Source: Pseudomonas fulva NBRC 16637 = DSM 17717
GTDB lineage: Bacteria; Pseudomonadota; Gammaproteobacteria; Pseudomonadales; Pseudomonadaceae
Assembly: GCF_000730565.1 (NCBI RefSeq)
Contig: NZ_BBIQ01000009.1
Span: 62,001 to 126,000, forward strand
Direction: 5' to 3'
Length of the DNA: 64,000 bases
Shown piece by piece: positions 30,673 to 58,940 of the stretch. The translations under genes and the position numbers were made by a program. The first letter of the stretch is position 1, and each line of letters starts with the position of its first letter. A model generated the notes under the pieces. It saw only the letters and a program-made list of their open reading frames with translations, was not told where the DNA came from and searched no databases.

Positions 30673-31770
30673 TCAGATTAGGTGCAGGTGATTGTCCCAG
30701 AAGCCTGAAGGCAGGTTCAGGGGCTGGCCGACGAGCTGGTGCTTGCGGCAATCATAGAACCGGCAACGGCCTTGGCCAGATGTCACGACGAACCCGTCCT
30801 TCACCGCACCAACCCCGGCACAGTCGGGCATGGGCGCATCCAGACGAACGGCGCCGCTGTCCAGGTCCCAGACGAACAGGCGGTTAGCCCGTGGTGCTGT
30901 CAAGGCCACCAGACGCAGTTCGTCGTGAATGGCCACGCTGGCGGTGTACTGGGCCATGGCCTGTAGCTGGTGTTGCGCAACGGGGAAAGCCTGGAAAGGC
31001 TGGCCCGGCCGTTTGATCGCCAGTAGCTCGGCAGTATCCGAGGCATCCCCCATGAACTGCTGGCACGCGGCAATGGTGCCGTCGCGTGCTACCGCCAGGT
31101 GACGAACACTGTTCATCTGCTGGGCCAGGGTTTCCTTGCTCAACAAGGTGCCGTCGCGCTGCATCAGCACCAGGCTCGGCTCCATGGCATCAAGGTTCAT
31201 TTCCACCCGGCTTTCGGCTTCGGTACGGATGCCACCGTTGGCGACTACCAGCGTTTCGCCGTCCGGCAGCCAGGCGACTTCGTGCGGGCCAATGCCGTGG
31301 GTGCTGAGCTCGCCTGTGCGCACCAGGCGCTCGTCGTCGAAACGATAGACCCCCAGCACGCCACGGCCAGGGTCACGGGTATCGTTTTCGGTGGTGTATA
31401 GCCACTGTCCGTCCTTGTGGAGCACGGCATGACCATAGAAATGCCGGTCGGGCGGCGATACCACCGTCTGCAGCAGCTTCCCGTCGCGCAGATCGACCAG
31501 GTAGCTTTCGGTCCCTGGGCGGCGAGCCACGAACAGGGCGACGGGCCGGTCGGGGTGATCGATGATGGCATGGCAACGCTGGGCGACCTGGGTGCTGAAC
31601 ACCTGGGTGCCGTCCAGGCGATAGCCCACGGCGTAGTGCTTGCCGTCGGCGTCGTCGCGTGCCGAGAGCAGCAAGGGCTCGCTACCTTTGTTGCGCAGAA
31701 GCGTCCAGCCGCCCAAGGTAAGGGCACTGAGCACAACGCTACCGAGTTTCAGGGCCTGGCGTCGCAGCAT
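30673..31770 (-). CDS. DUF1513 protein, Tat-like signal, beta-propeller
   Basis: 365 residues starting MLRRQALKLGSVVLSALTLGG, a twin-arginine-like signal with the RR pair followed by a hydrophobic stretch. The body has WD/NHL-like blades (HEVAWLPDGETLVVANGG, GHAVLHKDGQWLYTTENDT, FVWDLDSGAVRLD), as in DUF1513 propellers. It is the last gene of the imelysin operon, 2 bp after the second imelysin gene, and is likely periplasmic. Substrate unknown. Confidence 0.8.
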   Translation of the reverse strand: MLRRQALKLGSVVLSALTLGGWTLLRNKGSEPLLLSARDDADGKHYAVGYRLDGTQVFSTQVAQRCHAIIDHPDRPVALFVARRPGTESYLVDLRDGKLLQTVVSPPDRHFYGHAVLHKDGQWLYTTENDTRDPGRGVLGVYRFDDERLVRTGELSTHGIGPHEVAWLPDGETLVVANGGIRTEAESRVEMNLDAMEPSLVLMQRDGTLLSKETLAQQMNSVRHLAVARDGTIAACQQFMGDASDTAELLAIKRPGQPFQAFPVAQHQLQAMAQYTASVAIHDELRLVALTAPRANRLFVWDLDSGAVRLDAPMPDCAGVGAVKDGFVVTSGQGRCRFYDCRKHQLVGQPLNLPSGFWDNHLHLI

Positions 31771-31772
31771 GA

Positions 31773-32837
31773 TCAGTCACCGTCGTTGGCGTTGAAACCC
31801 AACTGAATGTTAAGTGCCTTGGCCAACTCACCTTCATGCAGGCGGTGTACCACGTTGAGGCTGTCGTAGATCTGGTTGAGGGTCTGCTGGCCTGCATCGT
31901 CGGCCAGCAGCTCGCCCAGGGTTTTCTGATTGTCGGCCAGCAACTTCAACGATGTGGCGTAGGCATCGTCTATCTTTTGCGCAAGCGCCTTCTGATCGCT
32001 AGGCAGCAGCCCGCGCAGCCCTTGATTGTCCACACCCACCCAGACCGCCTGGGCCGCCTTGAGGCTGGCCTGGAGGCTGTTCATGGAGTTGTGGCTACGC
32101 CAGGCTTCAGCCTGCAGCGGCTGTGGGATGCCTTTGCTTTGCCGCCCCATGGGCGCACCCAGCTTTTTCTTCAGCGAGTCCAAAGCGGTCACCTGTGCGC
32201 GCAGCAGGTCGGCGATGGCCTCGTGCGAATCGGCGTAGCGCTGGTTGGGGAACTTGGTCATCTGCGAGAGCATGCCATCAGTGCTGTTCCAGCCCTTGAG
32301 AATTTCCTCGGCCAGCCCCTTCTGGTGCTCGGCGATGGCCACCAGCATCGGGCAGTATCGCGCCTTCTGCTCGGCCGTGGCGATGTCCGGCTTGCTGTCG
32401 AACAGGATGTACTCATAGGCCGACAAGCCGCGGACGACAACGCTGGCCTTGGCCAGGGAGGCCGCATCGACAGGCTTGTCCGCATTGACCAATTGCTCGA
32501 CCTGACGGCCGACCAGGTTCTTCTTGTCAGGCCAGAACTGTACCTGCCACGCACGGTTGCCTTCGGCCAGTGGACCCACCAGCAAGGGTTGCAGTTCGGC
32601 CCAGGCCTTTTGCGCATTGAGGAAATCGGCGCGCGCCTTTTCCAGGGTCTCCTTGCCTTCACAGAAAGCCAGGGCGCTGGCGGCCAGCATGCGGTCGGCT
32701 TCGACCCAGCGGCTGTAGGTGGGCAGGATCACCTGCTTGGCGATGGCCGCGGAGGTGACGGCCTGCGGATCCTGCGGCGAGCAGGCGCCAAGGGCCAGGG
32801 CAGCGAGGCTGGTAAACAACAGTTTGGGTCGGAACAT
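31773..32837 (-). CDS. imelysin-family lipoprotein lacking the usual histidine
   Basis: 354 residues, lipobox LALGACSPQ with the cysteine at about 19. The imelysin (peptidase M75-like) fold is all-helical and occurs in iron-regulated periplasmic proteins. The family's GxHxxE motif appears here as GLSAYEYILFD, so the glutamate stays but the histidine is replaced. It is translated between the di-haem oxidoreductase and the DUF1513 gene and is probably a partner of both. Confidence 0.85.
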   Translation of the reverse strand: MFRPKLLFTSLAALALGACSPQDPQAVTSAAIAKQVILPTYSRWVEADRMLAASALAFCEGKETLEKARADFLNAQKAWAELQPLLVGPLAEGNRAWQVQFWPDKKNLVGRQVEQLVNADKPVDAASLAKASVVVRGLSAYEYILFDSKPDIATAEQKARYCPMLVAIAEHQKGLAEEILKGWNSTDGMLSQMTKFPNQRYADSHEAIADLLRAQVTALDSLKKKLGAPMGRQSKGIPQPLQAEAWRSHNSMNSLQASLKAAQAVWVGVDNQGLRGLLPSDQKALAQKIDDAYATSLKLLADNQKTLGELLADDAGQQTLNQIYDSLNVVHRLHEGELAKALNIQLGFNANDGD

Positions 32838-32856: not shown

Positions 32857-34284
32857 TTAAAGTGAGTTCAGAAAAGCCAGCAGCGCAGCGCGCTGCTCGG
32901 CATCGAATGTAAGGACGAAATCGCGTGCTGCCTGGGCTTCGCCGCCGTGCCACAGCACCGCTTCGAGCAAGTTGCGCGCGCGTCCGTCATGCAGAAATTG
33001 CGAGTGACCGCTGACCGTTTCGCTCAGGCCGATTCCCCAGAGCGGGGCCGTGCGCCAGTCCTGGCCGTTGGCGGCAAATTCGGTTCGTTCATCGGCAAGG
33101 CCGGGCCCCATGTCATGCAGCAGCAGATCGGTATAGGGCCGGATGGTCTGACCGGCGAGCTCCGGCTCGGCGGCATCGCTGGCGGTGGTGAACTGAGGAA
33201 TGTGACAACTCTGGCACCCGGCCTCGTGGAACAGGTTCTTGCCTGCAAGCACCTGGGGGTCAGACACATCCCGCCGGGCCGGTACTGCAAGGTTGCGTGT
33301 ATAGAAGGTGACCAGGCGCAGGATGTTGTCACTGACTTCCTTTTCGCCTGCCACGCCGTCGCCATTGGGCGCTGCGCGGCATTCGACCTGCGCCTGGGTG
33401 CAGTCGTCGTTGGGCTGCAATGTCGTCGTCAGGCCCATGTCGCCGGCGAACGCATGCGCGTTCTGCTGGTTCACGTTGGGCTGGCCCGCTTTCCACCCAA
33501 AGCGGCCAACAACTGAACGTCCCTGAGCGTCGTCCCATACGCGGTTGGCGCGCCCACGAATCCCGTCGCGATTGCGGTCGTCCGGGTCTTCGTTGGCCAG
33601 CAGGTCGGCCTCGGGGATCGCCTCGAGCAGGCCCAGGCCGATCATCGGTGGCGCCACGCGTGCCGAAAAGCGCGTGTCCGGGTGCATCGCCCCATAGCCC
33701 AGCTGAGTGATCTGCAACGCAGGCATGCGCAGCTCGACCTGATAGCCATCCTTGAACGAGACCGTCTGCGGGGTGTAGGTCATGCGCACCTTGCCTTCAG
33801 GCACTACGCCAGGAATGGCCATGTCCTGAAGCTGGGTGCCGTACACAGGTTCCGGTACCACCCCGAGCCGTTCGATGACCTTGGCCAGGTAGGGCTGGTC
33901 AGGTATCGACAGGCGCACGAGCATGCCAACTGCATTGCTGGCATCTGTTGCGGGGGGGTGGCCACGCCCGTCGCGCACATGGCAGTTCTGGCAGGCGTTG
34001 GTATTGAACAAGGGGCCCAGGCCGTCGCGCGCCGTTGTGGTAGAGGGGGCGATGACCCACGGGTTGCGAAAGAAACTGTTGCCCACGGCAAAGTCCAGGC
34101 GCCGCTCAGGGGAGAGATTGGCAGCGGGCTGCGAATACGCATTGCGGTCACTGCGCAACACGGTCGTCTTGCCACCTGACAGCGCTTCGCCCGGCTCGGC
34201 CTGGGTGAAACGCGGAGCGTCATCACAGGCAGCGAGGGCAAAGACCAGCAGCAGAGGGGCAAGTCGGGACAGCGGCAGGGACAT
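32857..34284 (-). CDS. di-haem oxidoreductase (DHOR, thiol oxidoreductase-like) lipoprotein
   Basis: 475 residues, signal with lipobox LVFALAACDD. Two covalent haem sites are visible, ACQNCHVRDGRGHPP (about residue 98) and GCQSCHIPQF (about residue 355). The family (DUF1111/DHOR) is often found with imelysins and is thought to transfer electrons in the periplasm, perhaps with iron. The ATG at 34284 is chosen because the signal peptide starts there. Its ribosome-binding site AGGA lies inside the 3' arm of a 13-bp hairpin. Confidence 0.87.
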   Translation of the reverse strand: MSLPLSRLAPLLLVFALAACDDAPRFTQAEPGEALSGGKTTVLRSDRNAYSQPAANLSPERRLDFAVGNSFFRNPWVIAPSTTTARDGLGPLFNTNACQNCHVRDGRGHPPATDASNAVGMLVRLSIPDQPYLAKVIERLGVVPEPVYGTQLQDMAIPGVVPEGKVRMTYTPQTVSFKDGYQVELRMPALQITQLGYGAMHPDTRFSARVAPPMIGLGLLEAIPEADLLANEDPDDRNRDGIRGRANRVWDDAQGRSVVGRFGWKAGQPNVNQQNAHAFAGDMGLTTTLQPNDDCTQAQVECRAAPNGDGVAGEKEVSDNILRLVTFYTRNLAVPARRDVSDPQVLAGKNLFHEAGCQSCHIPQFTTASDAAEPELAGQTIRPYTDLLLHDMGPGLADERTEFAANGQDWRTAPLWGIGLSETVSGHSQFLHDGRARNLLEAVLWHGGEAQAARDFVLTFDAEQRAALLAFLNSL

Positions 34285-34289
34285 GCAGA

Positions 34290-34340
34290 ATCCTGGGCCT
34301 GAACGTAAAAACCGGCGTGCAAGCTTATCAGGCCCAGGAT
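34290..34340 (-). promoter_or_regulatory. 13-bp inverted repeat covering the oxidoreductase ribosome-binding site
   Basis: ATCCTGGGCCTGA and TCAGGCCCAGGAT are perfect 13-bp complements around a 25-nt loop. On the message, AGGA of the 3' arm is the likely Shine-Dalgarno sequence, 8 nt ahead of ATG. The stem would block ribosomes unless opened by a protein, RNA or metal-dependent event. Chance for 13 of 13 is small. Confidence 0.6.
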
Positions 34341-34355
34341 CATTGAATAAGAGCA

Positions 34356-34367
34356 ATTTGCGTTTGC
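34356..34367 (-). promoter_or_regulatory. GCAAACGCAAAT element (copy 2)
   Basis: A 12-mer that differs at one base from the element upstream of icmP, at a similar distance (72 nt) from the start codon. See copy 1. Confidence 0.4.
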
Positions 34368-34392
34368 TGGATGAAATCGTCTTGGCAGGTGC

Positions 34393-34779
34393 TTATGCCA
34401 TGAAGAGTTTGAACTGGCGATTGACCAGGCTGACGATGAGGTTCTTGCTACCGCCTTCATGATTATCGCCCGGGACCTCCATCACTTCTTCGCTGGTGTA
34501 TTCCATGGACGAGGCGGTCAGGTATTTCACTACATCCTTGTGGGCGGGCTGCCAGTAATCCTGAAAAACCCAGATGTTGGTCTCTGCACCTGGCCCCAGA
34601 ATCAAGCGCAGCGCCTTGTAGTTCTCTTTGGATTTACCGATCCAAGGTACCGCGAGCGAGCCGTTCCAGGCGTGCTGGGCGCCAATTGCCAGGCTTTGGC
34701 TACGGCTCTCTCCGTCAACCAAAGTCAGGGTATAAGGCGTGTTGTTGGCAATGGAACGCAGGTAGGTGACGCTGGCCAT
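34393..34779 (-). CDS. unknown 128-residue protein, second gene of a two-gene cassette
   Basis: Not recognised. 128 residues, beta-strand-rich by eye (SIANNTPYTLTLVDGES, AWNGSLAVPWIGKSKENY, NIWVFQDYWQPAHKD), with several tryptophans and no signal peptide, membrane segment or cysteine. The pattern recalls single-domain beta-sandwich proteins such as small lectin- or toxin-like folds, but this is only an impression. TAAAGGAGATACACC gives a strong ribosome-binding site. GC by my count over 34441-34680 is about 56 percent, below its neighbours, which suggests transfer. It follows the 160-residue gene after 12 bp. Confidence 0.7.
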   Translation of the reverse strand: MASVTYLRSIANNTPYTLTLVDGESRSQSLAIGAQHAWNGSLAVPWIGKSKENYKALRLILGPGAETNIWVFQDYWQPAHKDVVKYLTASSMEYTSEEVMEVPGDNHEGGSKNLIVSLVNRQFKLFMA

Positions 34780-34791
34780 GGTGTATCTCCT

Positions 34792-35274
34792 TTATGGATG
34801 AGTACTCGGACGTGGCAAGGGGGCGCTCGGGGCGCGGTATACGTAGGCCGCGAGCAAGGTGATTTCATTGAAGGGCGGTTCGAGGGTGGCTGGATCGAAG
34901 CGACCCAAGGGTTGCAGGCCATACTCGTGAGCCACGGCTTCGAACAGTCGTCGGTCGCTTTCGTTGGGGTCGTACAGGTAGACCTTGCCTGACCCTGCCA
35001 ATACACGGCACATTTCCTCGGCCACCGTGTGGGTGATCGGCGCGCCCATGAGGGTGACATGCGGGACGGAGTGATCGTCGATCGGGAACTTGGGCGCGTC
35101 GTACTCATACACCAGGATCAAGTTGGGAATCGGCCCGCCAGCAAATGGGCCGTTGGAGATGCGCTGCCCTGCTTTGTTGAGGTTATAGGCGTTGTGAAAT
35201 CCTGTGATCAGGTTCGCGCCTTCAGCGCGCTGCACGATCCGGCCCTCTCCCCAGACATCGAGAATCTGCAGCAT
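34792..35274 (-). CDS. unknown 160-residue protein, first gene of a two-gene cassette
   Basis: Not recognised. 160 residues from the ATG at 35274, which has GGGAGG six bases ahead (a longer frame from 35325 is less likely). Visible: MLQILDVWGEGRIVQRAEG, an Asn- and Pro-rich middle (ISNGPFAGGPIPNLILVYEY), and GSGKVYLYDPNESDRRLFE followed by FNEITLLAAYVYRAP. The last part has a weak resemblance to the end of a methyltransferase Rossmann fold, but no SAM motif I is visible. No signal peptide. The pair lies between a terminator and the oxidoreductase gene and is absent from that position in P. aeruginosa as I recall. Confidence 0.7.
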   Translation of the reverse strand: MLQILDVWGEGRIVQRAEGANLITGFHNAYNLNKAGQRISNGPFAGGPIPNLILVYEYDAPKFPIDDHSVPHVTLMGAPITHTVAEEMCRVLAGSGKVYLYDPNESDRRLFEAVAHEYGLQPLGRFDPATLEPPFNEITLLAAYVYRAPSAPLPRPSTHP

Positions 35275-35363
35275 TGGCTGCCTCCCTGTTGGCGATTGAA
35301 TGATGCGTACAGGGTGGTCGATCATCGGCCTGCCAGGCAGCGGGAAGCGCTGCCGCAGACATG

Positions 35364-35389
35364 AAAACGCCCGGCTCTAGGCCGGGCGT
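35364..35389 (-). terminator. rho-independent terminator after icmP
   Basis: Minus-strand ACGCCCGGC-CTAGA-GCCGGGCGT followed by TTTT. It ends icmP transcription and separates it from the unknown cassette, which therefore needs its own promoter. Confidence 0.85.
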
Positions 35390-35411
35390 CGGGTGTTGCA
35401 CAAGGGTGGGA

Positions 35412-36749
35412 TCAGAACTCGTGGTCGGCTGTGTCAGGGTTCAGGTTGTCGATACCCAGTTTGCCGGCTGCCTGTTCGATGGCACCGGTCTGCTTGACCA
35501 GGGCTGCAATCGCATCACGCACGATCTGATTGCCGGCGGTGTTGTCGGCAGCGATCAGTTGGTCGTAGTGCTCGCCTTTGAGGGCGTGATCGACGATCAC
35601 CTGGATCTTCGCTTCGGTGGCTTCCAGGTCTGCGCGCAAGGTCGCATCGGCGGCAGGGTCGGCCTTGGCCACCAGTGACGACAGGCTAGGCCCGGTCAGC
35701 TTGGTGCCATCGGGGCGGGTGTACTCGCCCAGATAGACGTTGCGAATGCCCTTGGCATCGTAGAAATGCGAGTAGTGAGTGTTGTCGCTGAAGCAGTCGT
35801 GTTCGTCCTCGGGCGAGTTCGCCTCCAGGGACACCTTCATGCGCTCACCGGCCAGCTCACCGAGCGACAGGCTGCCCATGCCGAACAGCATCTTGCGCAA
35901 GCCGTCGGTGGCAGGCTCGGCTTCGAGCTTGGCGCGATAGTTGTCGGTCACGTTCGGCGCCCAGTTGGCAACCATCTCGTCGAGATCGGCGACCAGCAGG
36001 TCGGTGACGGCCTTGAGGTAGGCACGGCGGCGGTCGTTGTGACCACCCGTGGCACCCTGGCCTTCGAGGTAGTCCGACGCCGGACGGTTACCCGCACCTG
36101 GGCCGGTACCGTTCAGGTCCTGGCCCCATAGCAGGAATTCGATGGCGTGGTAGCCGGTGGCGACGTTGGCTTCGGAGCCGCCCAACTCGTTGAGGCTGGC
36201 CAGCTTCTCCGGGGTGATGTCCTTGACGTCGATCTTCTCTTCGCCCACCTGGATCTCGGTGTTGGCGATGATATTGGCACTGGCTGCCGGGTTGCCCAGG
36301 GCGTGCTCATAGCTGGTGTCGACGTAGTCGATCAGGCCTTCGTCCAGGGGCCAGGCGTTCACCTGGCCTTCCCAGTCGTCGATGATGGTGTTGCCGAAGC
36401 GGAACACTTCGCTTTGCAGGTATGGCACGCGCGCAGCGACCCAGGCGTCCCTGGCGGCCTTGAGCGTCTGATCGTTGGGCGTGGCGAGGAATGCGTCCAC
36501 GGCGCTCTGCAGGGTTTTGGCGGTGCTCAGCGAGTCGCTGTACACGGCATGGACCATCTCGGCGTAGTGCTTGACCACGGCCTTGGCAGCGGCTTCGTCG
36601 ACAGCCCCCGGCGTTGCTGCAGGGGTGCTGGCGGCAGCGGGCGCCTGGGCTTGCGGCGCGGCGGTCTTGTCGTCCTTGCCTTCACCGCAACCGGCGAGAG
36701 CGATGGCAATGGCCAGCAGACTGGCAGAGGCCAGGGGCGTTCGAATCAT
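35412..36749 (-). CDS. icmP: imelysin-family metalloprotein IcmP-like lipoprotein
   Basis: 445 residues with lipobox IALAGCGEG, an Ala-Pro-rich linker, and the full imelysin motif in GYHAIEFLLWGQDLNG (GxHxxE, about residue 200). P. aeruginosa IcmP was described as an insulin-cleaving outer-membrane protein, but imelysins are now mostly viewed as iron-linked periplasmic binding proteins. Glutamate- and histidine-rich segments fit metal binding. A Fur-like site lies 75-92 nt upstream. It heads the cluster, but a terminator follows it. Confidence 0.9.
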   Translation of the reverse strand: MIRTPLASASLLAIAIALAGCGEGKDDKTAAPQAQAPAAASTPAATPGAVDEAAAKAVVKHYAEMVHAVYSDSLSTAKTLQSAVDAFLATPNDQTLKAARDAWVAARVPYLQSEVFRFGNTIIDDWEGQVNAWPLDEGLIDYVDTSYEHALGNPAASANIIANTEIQVGEEKIDVKDITPEKLASLNELGGSEANVATGYHAIEFLLWGQDLNGTGPGAGNRPASDYLEGQGATGGHNDRRRAYLKAVTDLLVADLDEMVANWAPNVTDNYRAKLEAEPATDGLRKMLFGMGSLSLGELAGERMKVSLEANSPEDEHDCFSDNTHYSHFYDAKGIRNVYLGEYTRPDGTKLTGPSLSSLVAKADPAADATLRADLEATEAKIQVIVDHALKGEHYDQLIAADNTAGNQIVRDAIAALVKQTGAIEQAAGKLGIDNLNPDTADHEF

Positions 36750-36822
36750 TGTTGGTTTCCTGCGTCGTGTGGTTGGACCATGGATGAACCGTGCGCGATG
36801 GCACGTTGAACCGACACATCAT

Positions 36823-36841
36823 GCGAAAGATTTGCATTTGC
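36823..36841 (-). promoter_or_regulatory. Fur-like site / GCAAATGCAAAT element (copy 1) ahead of icmP
   Basis: Minus-strand GCAAATGCAAATCTTTCGC matches the 19-bp Fur consensus at 12 positions by my count. Its left part, GCAAATGCAAAT, recurs with one change 72 nt ahead of the di-haem oxidoreductase gene, so both units of the iron-linked cluster may share one regulator. Confidence 0.45.
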
Positions 36842-36900
36842 TGTAAAGGGTCCAGCCTGCGATTCATGTAAAAGCAGGTCACGACGTGTCATCTGTGCAC

Positions 36901-38985
36901 TCAGAGCACGGAAACCTGATTGCGCTGGGCCTGCCTGAGGAAGCTGGTCAGTTCCCGGGCCGACAGCGGTTTGCTGTAGTGGTAGCCCTGGCCCTCGTGA
37001 CAGCCTTGGGCAATGATGTAGGCTTCCTGTTCGGCGGTTTCCACGCCTTCGGCAATGACCTGCATGCCCAGGCTTTTGCCCAACTGGATGATGGCGCGCA
37101 CGATGGTCGCGTCATCGTCGTCATCGAGCAGGTCCTGCACGAAGCTCTTGTCGATCTTGATCTTGTCCAGGGGCAAGGACTTGAGGTAACTCAATGACGA
37201 GTACCCGGTCCCGAAGTCGTCGATGGCGATCAGGGCGCCCGAGCGGCGCAGGCTCAGCAGGTGTTGGGCCGCGGTGCTGATGTCCTCCATCAGGCCAGTC
37301 TCGGTCACCTCCAGTTCCAGGCTGCGCGGGGGCAGGCGATAGGCCTGGAGCAAATTGTTCACCACCCGCGGCAGTTCGCTGTGGTGAAGTTGGACGGTGG
37401 ACAGGTTGACCGCCATGCGCAGTTCGCTGAAGCCCAGGTCGTGCCATTCGCGCAATTGCTGGCAGGCCTGGTCGAGCACCCACTCGCCGATCCCGATGAT
37501 GCTGCCGTTCTGTTCGGCCAGCGGTATGAACTGATCGGGCGGCACCATGCCCAGTTCCGGATGCTGCCAGCGCAACAGCGCCTCGACCCCTACAACGCGA
37601 TGATCGCGATAGCTGATCTGGGGTTGATACACCAGGTACAGCTGGTTGCGTGGCAGGGCCTCGCGCAGGTCCTTTTCCAGCTCACGGCGCCGACGCATCT
37701 CGGTGTCCACGCTCGCGATATAGAACTGGTAGCGATTGCGTGAGCGCGCCTTGGCCAGGGTCATGGTCTGTTCGGCTTTTTGCAGGAGTTTTTCGGTGCT
37801 GTCGCCGTCTTCCGGGAACAGGGTGATGCCAATGGTTGCGCGCAGCCGGATCTGCTGGTGGTGGTCCAGGTCGAAGGGCACTTCCAGGTCATCCAGGATG
37901 CTTTGCGCAAGCTCTGCCGCTTCGTAGGGCTGTTCGATGTTGGCCTGCACCAGTGCGAACTGGTCGCCCCCCAGCCGCGCCAGCGCGCCCAGTCGTCCGC
38001 TGTGGGCCCTCAGACGATCGGCCAAGGCCAGCAGCAACTGGTCGCCTACCTGGTAGGTGAACTGCTCGTTGATGCCCTTGAAATCATCCAGGCCTACGCA
38101 TAGCACGGCCACCCGGTGTTGCAGGCGCCCACCGTCCACCAGAATCTTGTCCAGTTGCTGCTGCAGTTGCTGGCGATTGGGCAGGCCGGTGAGGAAGTCG
38201 TACTGGGCCATGCGCTGCAGACTGTTCTCGGCCTCATGGCGCAGATGGGTATTGCGCTCGATCGATGCCAGCAACTGGTTGGCGGTGTTCACCCAAAGGC
38301 CGAGCTCGTTCTTCTCATGGCCTTTGATCAGTGGGATCTGATGCTGGCTGGGGCGATCCGGATTGATCTGGGTGAGGTGTTCGATGATTTTGGAGAGTGG
38401 CTTGGTCAACAGCCAGTGGTAGACCAGGTACAGCACCAGCCCCATGGCAAGCGCTCGAAGCACGCCGGAGATGAAGATGATCACGGCATTGATCAGAAAG
38501 TCTTCGCCATAGGCCGCCGTATCGAGGGTGATGTTGAGGTCGCCGTAATATTCACTGTAGGGCCCCCGGCCTACCAGCTGCGTGGAGTAGCTACGCTCCT
38601 GGCCAAGAATCAGGTCGGTGAGCCAACGCAGGGGCATGTCCTGCAAGGGTCGGGACTTTTCTGCCAGCATCGTCTCGTTGGGGTGGCCGATGGAGGCCAT
38701 TCGAACCGACTCGTCCTGAAACAGGCCTTCCATGACCTGCATGCCCATTTCTCGGTCCAGGCTGTAGACCGCCTGTGTGGAAGGATCGCGGAACATGTCG
38801 AGGATACGCTGGGCGTCATTGTTGACGGCCTGGCGTGTCTTGTAGGTGTCATAGACGATTTGCGCACAGCTGAGCACGACGCCGACCGCTAGCGCCGCCA
38901 GGAGCACGACCCTTAGCAACTTGACCGACAAGCTGTTACGCAATTCCAGCTTCAAGGGAGGTTCCTTAATCCATGCAAATGACAT
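36901..38985 (-). CDS. bifA: cyclic-di-GMP phosphodiesterase BifA (degenerate GGDEF, EAL)
   Basis: About 694 residues. Two membrane helices (about 20-42 and 155-185) flank a periplasmic sensor region, followed by HAMP-like linker, a GGDEF domain that reads LARLGGDQFALV (GGDQF, probably unable to make c-di-GMP), and an intact EAL domain (GVEALLRWQHPELG, DDFGTGYSSLSYLKSLPLDKIKIDKSF). The same GGDQF change and the place beside sodB identify BifA, which lowers c-di-GMP and controls biofilm dispersal and swarming. A GTG 18 bp upstream is an alternative start. Confidence 0.92.
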   Translation of the reverse strand: MSFAWIKEPPLKLELRNSLSVKLLRVVLLAALAVGVVLSCAQIVYDTYKTRQAVNNDAQRILDMFRDPSTQAVYSLDREMGMQVMEGLFQDESVRMASIGHPNETMLAEKSRPLQDMPLRWLTDLILGQERSYSTQLVGRGPYSEYYGDLNITLDTAAYGEDFLINAVIIFISGVLRALAMGLVLYLVYHWLLTKPLSKIIEHLTQINPDRPSQHQIPLIKGHEKNELGLWVNTANQLLASIERNTHLRHEAENSLQRMAQYDFLTGLPNRQQLQQQLDKILVDGGRLQHRVAVLCVGLDDFKGINEQFTYQVGDQLLLALADRLRAHSGRLGALARLGGDQFALVQANIEQPYEAAELAQSILDDLEVPFDLDHHQQIRLRATIGITLFPEDGDSTEKLLQKAEQTMTLAKARSRNRYQFYIASVDTEMRRRRELEKDLREALPRNQLYLVYQPQISYRDHRVVGVEALLRWQHPELGMVPPDQFIPLAEQNGSIIGIGEWVLDQACQQLREWHDLGFSELRMAVNLSTVQLHHSELPRVVNNLLQAYRLPPRSLELEVTETGLMEDISTAAQHLLSLRRSGALIAIDDFGTGYSSLSYLKSLPLDKIKIDKSFVQDLLDDDDDATIVRAIIQLGKSLGMQVIAEGVETAEQEAYIIAQGCHEGQGYHYSKPLSARELTSFLRQAQRNQVSVL

Positions 38986-57466: not shown

Positions 57467-58900
57467 GTGACTTCAAGCATTTTCTGGCATGACTACGAAA
57501 CCACCGGCATCAACCCGCGCTGCGACCGGCCCGTGCAGATGGCAGGGGTGCGTACCGACCTCGACCTGAATGAAATCGCCGAACCGATCAACCTCTATTG
57601 CCGCTTGTCGGATGACATATTGCCGCATCCTGCTGCCTGCCTGGTGACGGGCGTCACGCCGCAACAGTTGGCCGAAAAAGGACTCGGCGAGGCCGAGTTC
57701 ATGGCGCGCGTGCATGCCGAACTGGCGCAACCCGGTACCTGCGGTGCCGGCTACAACACGCTGCGTTTCGACGACGAAGTCACGCGCTACAGCCTATACC
57801 GCAACTTCTTCGACCCTTACGCACGCGAGTGGCAGGGCGGTAACAGTCGCTGGGACCTGATCGATATCGTCAGGACCGCGTTCGCGTTGCGTCCCGATGG
57901 CATTCAATGGCCCCAGCAGGAAGGGCGCATCAGTCTGCGCCTTGAGTTGTTGAGCAAGGCCAACGGCCTCGAACATGGCCACGCACACGAGGCACTCTCC
58001 GATGTTCGGGCGACCATTGCCCTTGCCCGGCTGATACGCGAGAAGCAGCCAAAGTTGTACGACTGGTTGTTTCAGCTTCGCAGCAAGCACAAGGTCATGG
58101 AGCAGATACGGCTGCTGCAGCCGATGGTGCATATTTCTGGACGTTTCAGTGCTGCGCGTCATTACTTGGGCGTCGTGTTGCCTTTGGCCTGGCACCCTAA
58201 AAACCGCAATGCATTGATTGTTTGCGATCTGCATCAGCAAACCCTGCCGCTGATTGAAGAGCGCGCCGAAACTTTGCGCCAGCGGCTCTATACCCGTCGA
58301 GAAGCCCTTGGCGAAGGCGAGCTCCCTGTACCGCTCAAACTCATCCAGATCAACCGCTGCCCGGTGGTGGCGCCCCTTTCTGTATTACGACCGGCTGATC
58401 AAGCGCGTCTGGGGATTGACCTGGACGCATTACAACGACGCGCCGAGGCATTGGTCCGTCAACAGGATCAATGGCAGGAAAAACTGGCACCTATTTATAC
58501 GCAAGACGGTTTTGCGGCCAGTGACGATCCTGAACAGCAATTGTATGAGCGGTTTCTCGGCGAGCGTGACCGGCGGTTATGCGATCAAGTGCGTTCGCTG
58601 TCGCCCGCCCAGTTGGGCGCCGGGCAGTGGATGTTCGATGATCCACGCTTGGCCGAATTGCTCTTTCGTTACCGTGCACGTAACTTTCCCGACACCTTGA
58701 ACGATGAAGACAGGGCGCGATGGCAGGATTTTTGTAGGCAACGTCTGACTGACCCCCGCTGGGGTGCGCCCAATACCCTGGGTGATTTCGCCCAGGCCCT
58801 GGCCGCAGCCTGGCCTGGCGCGGGTGAAGCAGGACAGCAAGTGCTGACAGCCTGGCAACTGCATGCCAACGCGTTGCAAACGAGGTTTGCCGTCAATTGA
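57467..58900 (+). CDS. sbcB: exodeoxyribonuclease I
   Basis: 477 residues. The DEDD exonuclease core is present: FWHDYETTGINPRCDRPVQ (DxE type), TCGAGYNTLRFDDEVTR, and HGHAHEALSDVRATIALARL. Degrades single-stranded DNA 3'-5' in recombination and mismatch repair. The GTG start has AGGA ahead. SH3-like and helical C-terminal regions are complete. Confidence 0.94.
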   Translation: MTSSIFWHDYETTGINPRCDRPVQMAGVRTDLDLNEIAEPINLYCRLSDDILPHPAACLVTGVTPQQLAEKGLGEAEFMARVHAELAQPGTCGAGYNTLRFDDEVTRYSLYRNFFDPYAREWQGGNSRWDLIDIVRTAFALRPDGIQWPQQEGRISLRLELLSKANGLEHGHAHEALSDVRATIALARLIREKQPKLYDWLFQLRSKHKVMEQIRLLQPMVHISGRFSAARHYLGVVLPLAWHPKNRNALIVCDLHQQTLPLIEERAETLRQRLYTRREALGEGELPVPLKLIQINRCPVVAPLSVLRPADQARLGIDLDALQRRAEALVRQQDQWQEKLAPIYTQDGFAASDDPEQQLYERFLGERDRRLCDQVRSLSPAQLGAGQWMFDDPRLAELLFRYRARNFPDTLNDEDRARWQDFCRQRLTDPRWGAPNTLGDFAQALAAAWPGAGEAGQQVLTAWQLHANALQTRFAVN

Positions 58901-58908
58901 AAGCCCAT

Positions 58909-58940
58909 AAAAAAACGCCGGTTATTAACCGGCGTTTTTT
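58909..58940. terminator. bidirectional terminator between sbcB and mvaT
   Basis: AACGCCGGTT-ATT-AACCGGCGTT, a 10-bp perfect stem flanked by A and T runs on both sides. It can end both convergent transcripts. Confidence 0.92.

What the first reader, a model, noticed from the sequence alone, without database searches (positions are those of the whole stretch)
34290..34340. Hairpin that hides the ribosome-binding site of the di-haem oxidoreductase gene
A perfect 13-bp inverted repeat with a 25-nt loop lies directly ahead of the start codon, and the AGGA that should bind the ribosome is inside its 3' arm. Such a layout can act as a translational switch, for instance through a protein, a small RNA or temperature. 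It may also mark one edge of the cassette insertion.
Basis: partly seen in the sequence, partly recalled or inferred. Interest (0 to 1): 0.5.

Follow-up and report, generated by a model that had tools for sequence, protein, structure and literature searches.

The report
Hairpin that silences read-through messages
A stretch of DNA inside a Pseudomonas promoter mirrors the next gene's ribosome-binding site, so messages running in from an inserted neighbouring gene pair should fold up and stay untranslated while messages from the gene's own promoter do not, a trick known from phage T4.

Summary
The inverted repeat is real (13/13 bp, 25-nt loop, minus strand) and buries the AGGA of the di-haem oxidoreductase (DHOR) gene. 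But its 5' arm is the spacer of the gene's own promoter: TTATTC and an extended -10 lie 17 bp apart in 124 of 126 unique leaders parsed, and the predicted start lies in the loop. So the gene's own messages lack the 5' arm; only messages reading in from upstream can fold. Upstream lies a two-gene cassette (7 of 398 Pseudomonas genomes) without a terminator before DHOR (found in 0 of 7; in 75 of 84 cassette-free loci). All 7 cassette loci and one decayed one have a stem of 9 bp or more. The spacer, normally variable, is identical in six although their cassettes are 71-92% identical; the seventh pairs through a GC-to-AU exchange. Best reading: a read-through silencer as in phage T4 gene e, here on a bacterial chromosome beside a horizontally exchanged cassette. 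Nothing was measured: start, read-through and block are inferred. Two cassette-free genomes also have 9-bp stems, and the pairing has few independent origins, so inheritance without function is not excluded. It is no thermometer.

The parts
34328..34340 (-). 5' arm ATCCTGGGCCTGA; the same bases are the promoter spacer and the TG of the extended -10
   Evidence: spacer 17 bp in 124 of 126 unique leaders
34303..34327 (-). 25-nt loop, holds -10 hexamer TAAGCT (34327-34322) and the predicted transcript start (about 34318-34314)
   Evidence: start inferred from promoter spacing, not mapped
34290..34302 (-). 3' arm TCAGGCCCAGGAT with Shine-Dalgarno AGGA at 34294-34291
   Evidence: GCCCAGGAT context common in putida-like leaders
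34345..34350 (-). -35-like hexamer TTATTC
   Evidence: only 2 of 6 to TTGACA, so it rests on conservation and spacing
34345..34364 (-). conserved box AACGCAAATTGCTCTTATTC, overlapping the -35; regulator not assigned
   Evidence: 9-11 of 19 to the Fur consensus over the unique leaders
32857..34284 (-). di-haem oxidoreductase (DHOR, PF06537), start ATG 34284
   Evidence: E 8.7e-98
34393..34779 (-). cassette gene 2 (cas2), 128 aa, unknown family
34792..35274 (-). cassette gene 1 (cas1), 160 aa from ATG 35274 (ORF runs up to 35325)
   Evidence: profile matches PDB 7wns_A '30K protein 12' E 4.5e-12
35364..35390 (-). intrinsic-terminator-like hairpin after the first imelysin gene, ahead of the cassette
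   Evidence: own scan (locus L186); sequence; missed by the stricter scan
35412..36749 (-). first imelysin gene (Peptidase_M75)
31773..32837 (-). second imelysin gene, downstream of DHOR
30673..31770 (-). DUF1513 gene, downstream of the second imelysin gene

Best explanation
The repeat is a read-through silencer built into a promoter. The DHOR gene has its own promoter whose 17-bp spacer is complementary to the gene's ribosome-binding site. Transcripts started there begin in the loop, lack the 5' arm and leave the AGGA free. Transcripts that run in from the cassette genes carry both arms, fold into the 13-bp stem and are not translated at DHOR, so DHOR (and by polarity perhaps the second imelysin and DUF1513 genes) stay under their own promoter although the cassette has no terminator. 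Shown by computation: the pairing, the promoter layout, the missing terminator, the frozen spacer in cassette loci. Inferred: the transcript start, read-through, the block of translation, the purpose.
For: Promoter: TTATTC, 17 bp, TGnTA in 124 of 126 unique leaders, length fixed, spacer sequence variable (the hexamers were required by the search pattern, but the unfiltered list shows the same by eye). Folding: in long RNA the Shine-Dalgarno is 0.000-0.002 unpaired in the 7 cassette leaders (L153 is listed under B there), 111 other leaders median 0.19; in RNA from the predicted start the 7 give 0.03-0.33. Context: a terminator between cas2 and the promoter in 0 of 7 cassette loci; in 75 of 84 cassette-free loci; in the 6 cassette loci preceded by the first imelysin gene it sits ahead of cas1. 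Association: cassette in 7 of 398 genomes, all 7 with a stem of 9-13 bp; the spacer pattern without mismatch in 9 of 397 genomes (the window's own genome not among them), 6 with the cassette, 1 with a cas2 relic (G165), 2 without (G110, G377). Constraint: spacer 13 of 13 columns invariant in six cassette loci; random native sixes mean 1.73, maximum 8 in 20,000 draws; cas2 3' part 57% invariant. 15 of 15 pairs of these six have 0 spacer differences at 71-92% cassette identity, while 0 of 1,598 native pairs below 90% DHOR identity are without differences. Compensatory pair GC to AU in 5 of 12 aligned leaders, G305's cassette locus included. In G305 the cassette follows a LysR-type gene instead of the imelysin gene and the stem is still there. 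Same logic documented for T4 gene e and I-TevI (passages of PMC3014915 and PMC2988022).
Against: No transcript start, read-through or translation data. The promoter hexamers match the sigma-70 consensus poorly (TTATTC 2 of 6, TAAGCT 3 of 6, plus TG) and the simple scan found no promoter in 34200-35500, neither here nor ahead of cas1; cassette transcription is not shown. G110 and G377 have 9-bp stems and G015 and G238 8-bp stems without a cassette; G110 and G015 also have a terminator-like hairpin upstream (sequence). In RNA from the predicted start some cassette leaders are still rather closed (0.03-0.07 in three), and other leaders have a median of 0.10 there. The five AU leaders are one group of the tree (support 90/81), so the compensatory change is probably one event. 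Six cassette loci share one leader haplotype, so the association has few independent origins. Most leaders in the genus have no such pairing.
Confidence: 0.55

Rival explanations
1. Hitch-hiking without function: the spacer came with the cassette-bearing haplotype from a donor group and is complementary by inheritance or by hairpin-templated mutation that copies the conserved ribosome-site sequence into the free spacer.
For: The cassette haplotype is scattered over the DHOR tree and the two arms have different histories in L127. Two cassette-free genomes related to G305 have 9-bp stems. Only one compensatory pair. Random spacers reach a run of 9 or more with probability about 0.001, so one origin in a large genus is possible.
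Against: Six haplotypes with cassettes 71-92% identical keep all 13 spacer bases; native spacers differ at 4-7 of 11 positions on average in the bins below 93% DHOR identity. G305's stem (12 bp) is longer than those of its cassette-free relatives (8-9 bp). The cassette-free BGr12 leader has a broken pair.
Confidence: 0.22
2. DNA-level element: the spacer is conserved because a regulator or RNA polymerase needs that sequence, and the complementarity is secondary.
For: The arm lies between -35 and -10 beside a conserved box.
Against: The same box and -10 stand with many different spacers in cassette-free relatives; the varying base changes together with its partner in the ribosome site.
Confidence: 0.12
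3. End element of the cassette message: the hairpin terminates or protects the 3' end of cas1-cas2 mRNA.
For: No terminator was found between cas2 and the DHOR promoter, and this is a strong hairpin just after it.
Against: No run of T follows the stem (TTCTGCATG), the 25-nt loop is long for a terminator, and the terminator scan found none here (a scan that also missed the hairpin ahead of cas1).
Confidence: 0.07
4. A classical switch on the normal message: protein, small RNA or temperature opens the stem.
For: The ribosome site is in the 3' arm.
Against: Predicted start inside the loop; no opening up to 60 C in the model; no Rfam family at its gathering score; not conserved across the genus. 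Protein and small-RNA partners were not tested.
Confidence: 0.04

Closest known systems
Phage T4 gene e (lysozyme) leader
   Same: Long upstream messages hide the Shine-Dalgarno in a stem; a promoter placed in the DNA of the 5' strand starts messages that lack it (PMC3014915, section 29, passage seen).
   Different: T4 uses late phage promoters and the effect (100-fold, as that review reports) is measured; here it is a conserved sigma-70-like promoter of a chromosomal gene next to a horizontally exchanged cassette, and nothing is measured.
T4 I-TevI, segB and phage Aeh1 mobE hairpins
   Same: Same promoter-plus-hairpin layout for genes of mobile elements (PMC2988022, section 12, passage seen).
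   Different: There the silenced gene is the mobile one; here the silenced gene is the resident and the mobile genes lie upstream.
ISPpu9 tnp leader of Pseudomonas putida KT2440
   Same: A 5'-UTR structure hides a ribosome site in the same bacterial group (PMC8450116, start of abstract, passages).
   Different: Opened by an antisense RNA; no promoter inside the hairpin is mentioned in the passages seen.
IS10/IS50 protection from outside transcription
   Same: Read-through messages fold to hide the start region (recalled, from no call).
   Different: Protects a transposase; recalled only.

Membership tests
Read-through-silencing hairpin of the T4 gene e kind | Shine-Dalgarno inside a stable stem in the long message | tested here: met
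   by folding model:
Read-through-silencing hairpin of the T4 gene e kind | Promoter whose start lies between the arms or in the 5' arm | tested here: inconclusive
   sequence supports it: conserved -35/17 bp/extended -10; hexamers weak, scan negative, start not mapped
Read-through-silencing hairpin of the T4 gene e kind | Upstream transcription reaches the gene | tested here: inconclusive
   terminator between cas2 and the promoter in 0 of 7; no RNA data
Read-through-silencing hairpin of the T4 gene e kind | Translation falls when both arms are present | not testable with these tools
   needs reporter or ribosome data
RNA thermometer | Stem opens in the physiological range | tested here: not met
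   model: AGGA unpaired 0.002 at 37 C, 0.003 at 42 C, 0.017 at 60 C
Intrinsic terminator | GC-rich stem, short loop, T run | tested here: not met
   25-nt loop, no T run
Known Rfam leader | Reaches a family's gathering score | tested here: not met
   two matches far below their gathering scores in 33800-37000, neither at the hairpin
Fur-controlled promoter | Match of at least 14 of 19 to GATAATGATAATCATTATC, or a central AANNNTT | tested here: not met
   best 10 of 19 in the window's DHOR leader, 9-11 over the unique leaders, no AANNNTT in the window's leader; the first imelysin leader has 12 of 19 with AANNNTT (criteria from passages of PMC6922518)

The most novel reading that the evidence does not exclude
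A horizontally exchanged gene cassette carries, at its outgoing edge, a promoter half whose spacer is an anti-Shine-Dalgarno against the recipient's conserved ribosome site. It replaces the terminator that it displaces with a translational insulator, so the cassette can enter a resident operon without switching the downstream genes on. Promoter spacer DNA, normally free to drift, is thereby under selection as the 5' arm of an RNA that its own promoter never makes.
Probability: 0.35. Interest if true: 0.65.

Novelty: new variant of a known kind. Interest (0 to 1): 0.5.

Why it matters
It would be a chromosomal, cassette-linked case of a mechanism described for phage T4, and a way for inserted genes to sit in an operon without disturbing it. 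It also gives a simple search rule: promoter spacers complementary to the downstream ribosome site where a terminator is missing. Five searches of the held library listed nothing closer than the phage and insertion-sequence cases, going by titles and abstract starts; two of the five returned no paper and the library lacks most subscription journals, so this is no proof of novelty.

Tried and rejected
Thermometer: rejected on the folding model. Rfam family: none at gathering score. Fur box at the DHOR promoter: I first took the conserved box for a Fur site; the unique leaders score 9 (73), 10 (21) or 11 (32) of 19, where 3,000 random 43-mers of the window run from 5 to 12 with 2.7% at 11 or more, and the AANNNTT centre is missing in the window's leader, so the regulator is left open; PMC3143127 (passages) calls the P. 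aeruginosa PA4370-PA4373 operon Fur-regulated. Genus-wide conserved pairing: rejected; of 126 unique leaders 10 have a run of 9 or more and 12 of 8 or more; own 12 against a mean of 4.84 and a maximum of 9 in 200 swaps, the shorter runs being about as common as in swaps. Insertion with target duplication or att-like repeats: none convincing in 34000-34600 (one imperfect 14-nt pair). Cassette elsewhere: of 274 genomes of the class only the window's own matched, of 76 relatives of G305 only G305, none on plasmids; phages and metagenomes were not searched for it. Stem as a general substitute for a missing terminator: not supported; of the 9 cassette-free loci without a scanned terminator only L183 has a run of 8 or more among the 8 that were parsed, and L183 has a GC-rich stem without a T run there. 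The near-matches (G015 1 mismatch, G007, G235 and G131 2 mismatches) are cassette-free. Rows dropped: 27 of 180 loci did not fit the leader pattern; of the 23 of these shown, by eye all but L002, L030 and L091 have the same promoter; 4 of 126 unique leaders were dropped for lack of a GGA-type site. G305 and G377 fell below the identity cut of the tree; one search places them. In one search L153 (G305) stands in group B because its cassette was found only of the same turn. The 'nearest neighbours' were picked by hand. Fisher values (4e-13 for 7 of 7 against 3 of 391, 1.4e-6 for terminators) ignore kinship and are not used as probabilities.

Full report
What is there. On the minus strand the window (a Pseudomonas of the putida kind by its nearest DHOR matches, such as P. 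putida NBRC 14671 at 89%) has a first imelysin gene (35412-36749), a terminator-like hairpin, two small genes of unknown family (cas1, cas2), then the DHOR gene (PF06537), a second imelysin gene and a DUF1513 gene. The repeat lies between cas2 and DHOR. The arms are perfect over 13 bp with a 25-nt loop; as RNA the stem is strong (-27 kcal/mol, z -4.2 on 64 nt, but z -1.6 on 131 nt). A repeat of this size by itself is expected in roughly one such window in seven (6 of 40 simulations).

The 5' arm is promoter DNA. DHOR homologues were found in 45 of 57 relatives, 80 loci were kept out of 561 in genome contigs, and the leader DNA matched in 223 of 398 Pseudomonas genomes. Of the loci in hand, 180 were parsed, 153 fitted the pattern, 126 leaders were unique. 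They share a conserved box ending in TTATTC, a variable stretch of usually 13 nt and mostly CTGnTAAGCT or CTGTTAGACT. The distance between the two hexamers is 17 bp in 124 of 126 and 18 in 2. A fixed length with a free sequence is what a promoter spacer looks like. In the window the hexamers are 34350-34345 and 34327-34322, so the transcript should start near 34318-34314, inside the loop. This start is inferred, not mapped; the hexamers are weak matches to the consensus and a simple promoter scan does not report them.

Pairing follows the cassette. Ten of 126 unique leaders have a run of 9 or more Watson-Crick pairs between spacer and ribosome site. Seven of these belong to the seven cassette-bearing genomes of 398 (G000, G112, G366, G102, G138, G412, G305); one (G165) keeps 27 codons of cas2 as a relic; two (G110, G377) have no cassette next to them (G377's contig ends 156 nt upstream, and its genome has no cas2 match). 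Two further cassette-free genomes have 8-bp runs (G015, G238). A pattern search of 397 other genomes gave hits without mismatch in 9, at this leader and all among the genomes just named. On DHOR trees the six cassette loci with the common leader are scattered. L127's gene and 3' arm are those of its L136/L139-type neighbours while its 5' arm is that of the other cassettes: the exchanged piece ends within the repeat. The left flank is exchanged too: the six carry a CGCCCGGC...GCCGGGCG terminator, six of the cassette-free loci listed a GGCGGCCTTCGGGTCGCC one. G305 is different: its cassette follows a LysR-type gene, with no first imelysin gene found up to 4.5 kb upstream.

The spacer is frozen where the cassette is. 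Among the six cassette loci with this leader the 13 spacer columns are all invariant, against a mean of 1.73 and a maximum of 8 in 20,000 random native sixes; 57% of columns of the cas2 3' part are invariant, and none of the 17 just after its stop. Six native neighbours picked by hand from the tree share 4 of 13. Pairwise, cassette genes are 71-92% identical with 0 spacer differences in 15 of 15 pairs; native pairs with DHOR 84-89% identical differ at 4.5-5.4 of 11 positions on average, and 0 of 1,598 native pairs below 90% are identical in the spacer. G305, whose cassette is 64-67% identical to the others, differs at 3 of 11 and keeps a 12-bp stem: a GC pair is AU, and an outer part pairs that does not pair in its relatives. 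The GC-to-AU exchange is seen in 5 of 12 aligned leaders; these five form one group of the tree (90/81), so it is probably one event. One of them, BGr12, cassette-free with a cassette-type flank, has another pair broken.

The context asks for insulation. A terminator-like hairpin lies between the upstream gene and the DHOR promoter in 75 of 84 cassette-free loci, and between cas2 and the promoter in 0 of 7 cassette loci (43-50 nt); in the six cassette loci with the first imelysin gene it sits ahead of cas1. So cassette messages should run into DHOR. In such messages the Shine-Dalgarno is practically closed in the model (0.000-0.002 unpaired), while messages from the predicted start give 0.03-0.33; other leaders give a median of 0.19 in long and 0.10 in short messages. 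The cassette-free leaders with stems are closed in long messages as well (0.000-0.019).

Mechanism. I take the repeat as a read-through silencer: closed in messages from the cassette, absent from messages of the gene's own promoter. The same layout is described for T4 gene e, where long early messages fold and the late promoter lies in the DNA of the 5' strand, and for I-TevI (passages seen). Untranslated DHOR could also expose the rest to Rho; that is inference. What is shown is sequence, pairing, promoter layout, missing terminator and constraint; start site, read-through, block and benefit are inferred.

Limits. The six identical spacers are one haplotype, so independent origins are few, perhaps two. 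Cassette-free genomes with stems show that the stem does not need the cassette today; loss of the cassette, as in G165, would explain them but is not shown for G110, G377 and G015. The conserved box is not a canonical Fur site.

Noticed in passing
34393-35274 (minus strand): Two-gene cassette of unknown family, in 7 of 398 Pseudomonas genomes, directly ahead of DHOR in all 7; in 6 it follows the first imelysin gene, in G305 a LysR-type gene. cas1's profile matches residues 67-196 of PDB 7wns_A '30K protein 12' (E 4.5e-12).
   Followed up: partly
L116 / L184 (G165), between imelysin and DHOR: Decayed cassette: only the last 27 codons of cas2 are recognisable, with the cassette-type terminator and leader.
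   Followed up: yes
34345-34364: Widely conserved promoter box (AACGATAATTnCTCTTATTC in fluorescens-like leaders) that is not a canonical Fur site; its regulator is unknown.
   Followed up: partly
36823-36841 (minus strand): GCAAATGCAAATCTTTCGC ahead of the first imelysin gene, 12 of 19 to the Fur consensus with the AANNNTT centre.
   Followed up: no
58910-58940: Perfect hairpin AAAAACGCCGGTTATTAACCGGCGTTTTT with T runs, just after the ORF ending at 58900: looks like an ordinary terminator usable from both sides.
   Followed up: no
L183 (G238) leader: An 8-bp spacer-ribosome-site pairing in another register (AACAATCC/GGATTGTT), without cassette; 8-bp runs arise in 0.5-1% of random spacers, so about one in 126 leaders is expected by chance.
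   Followed up: partly
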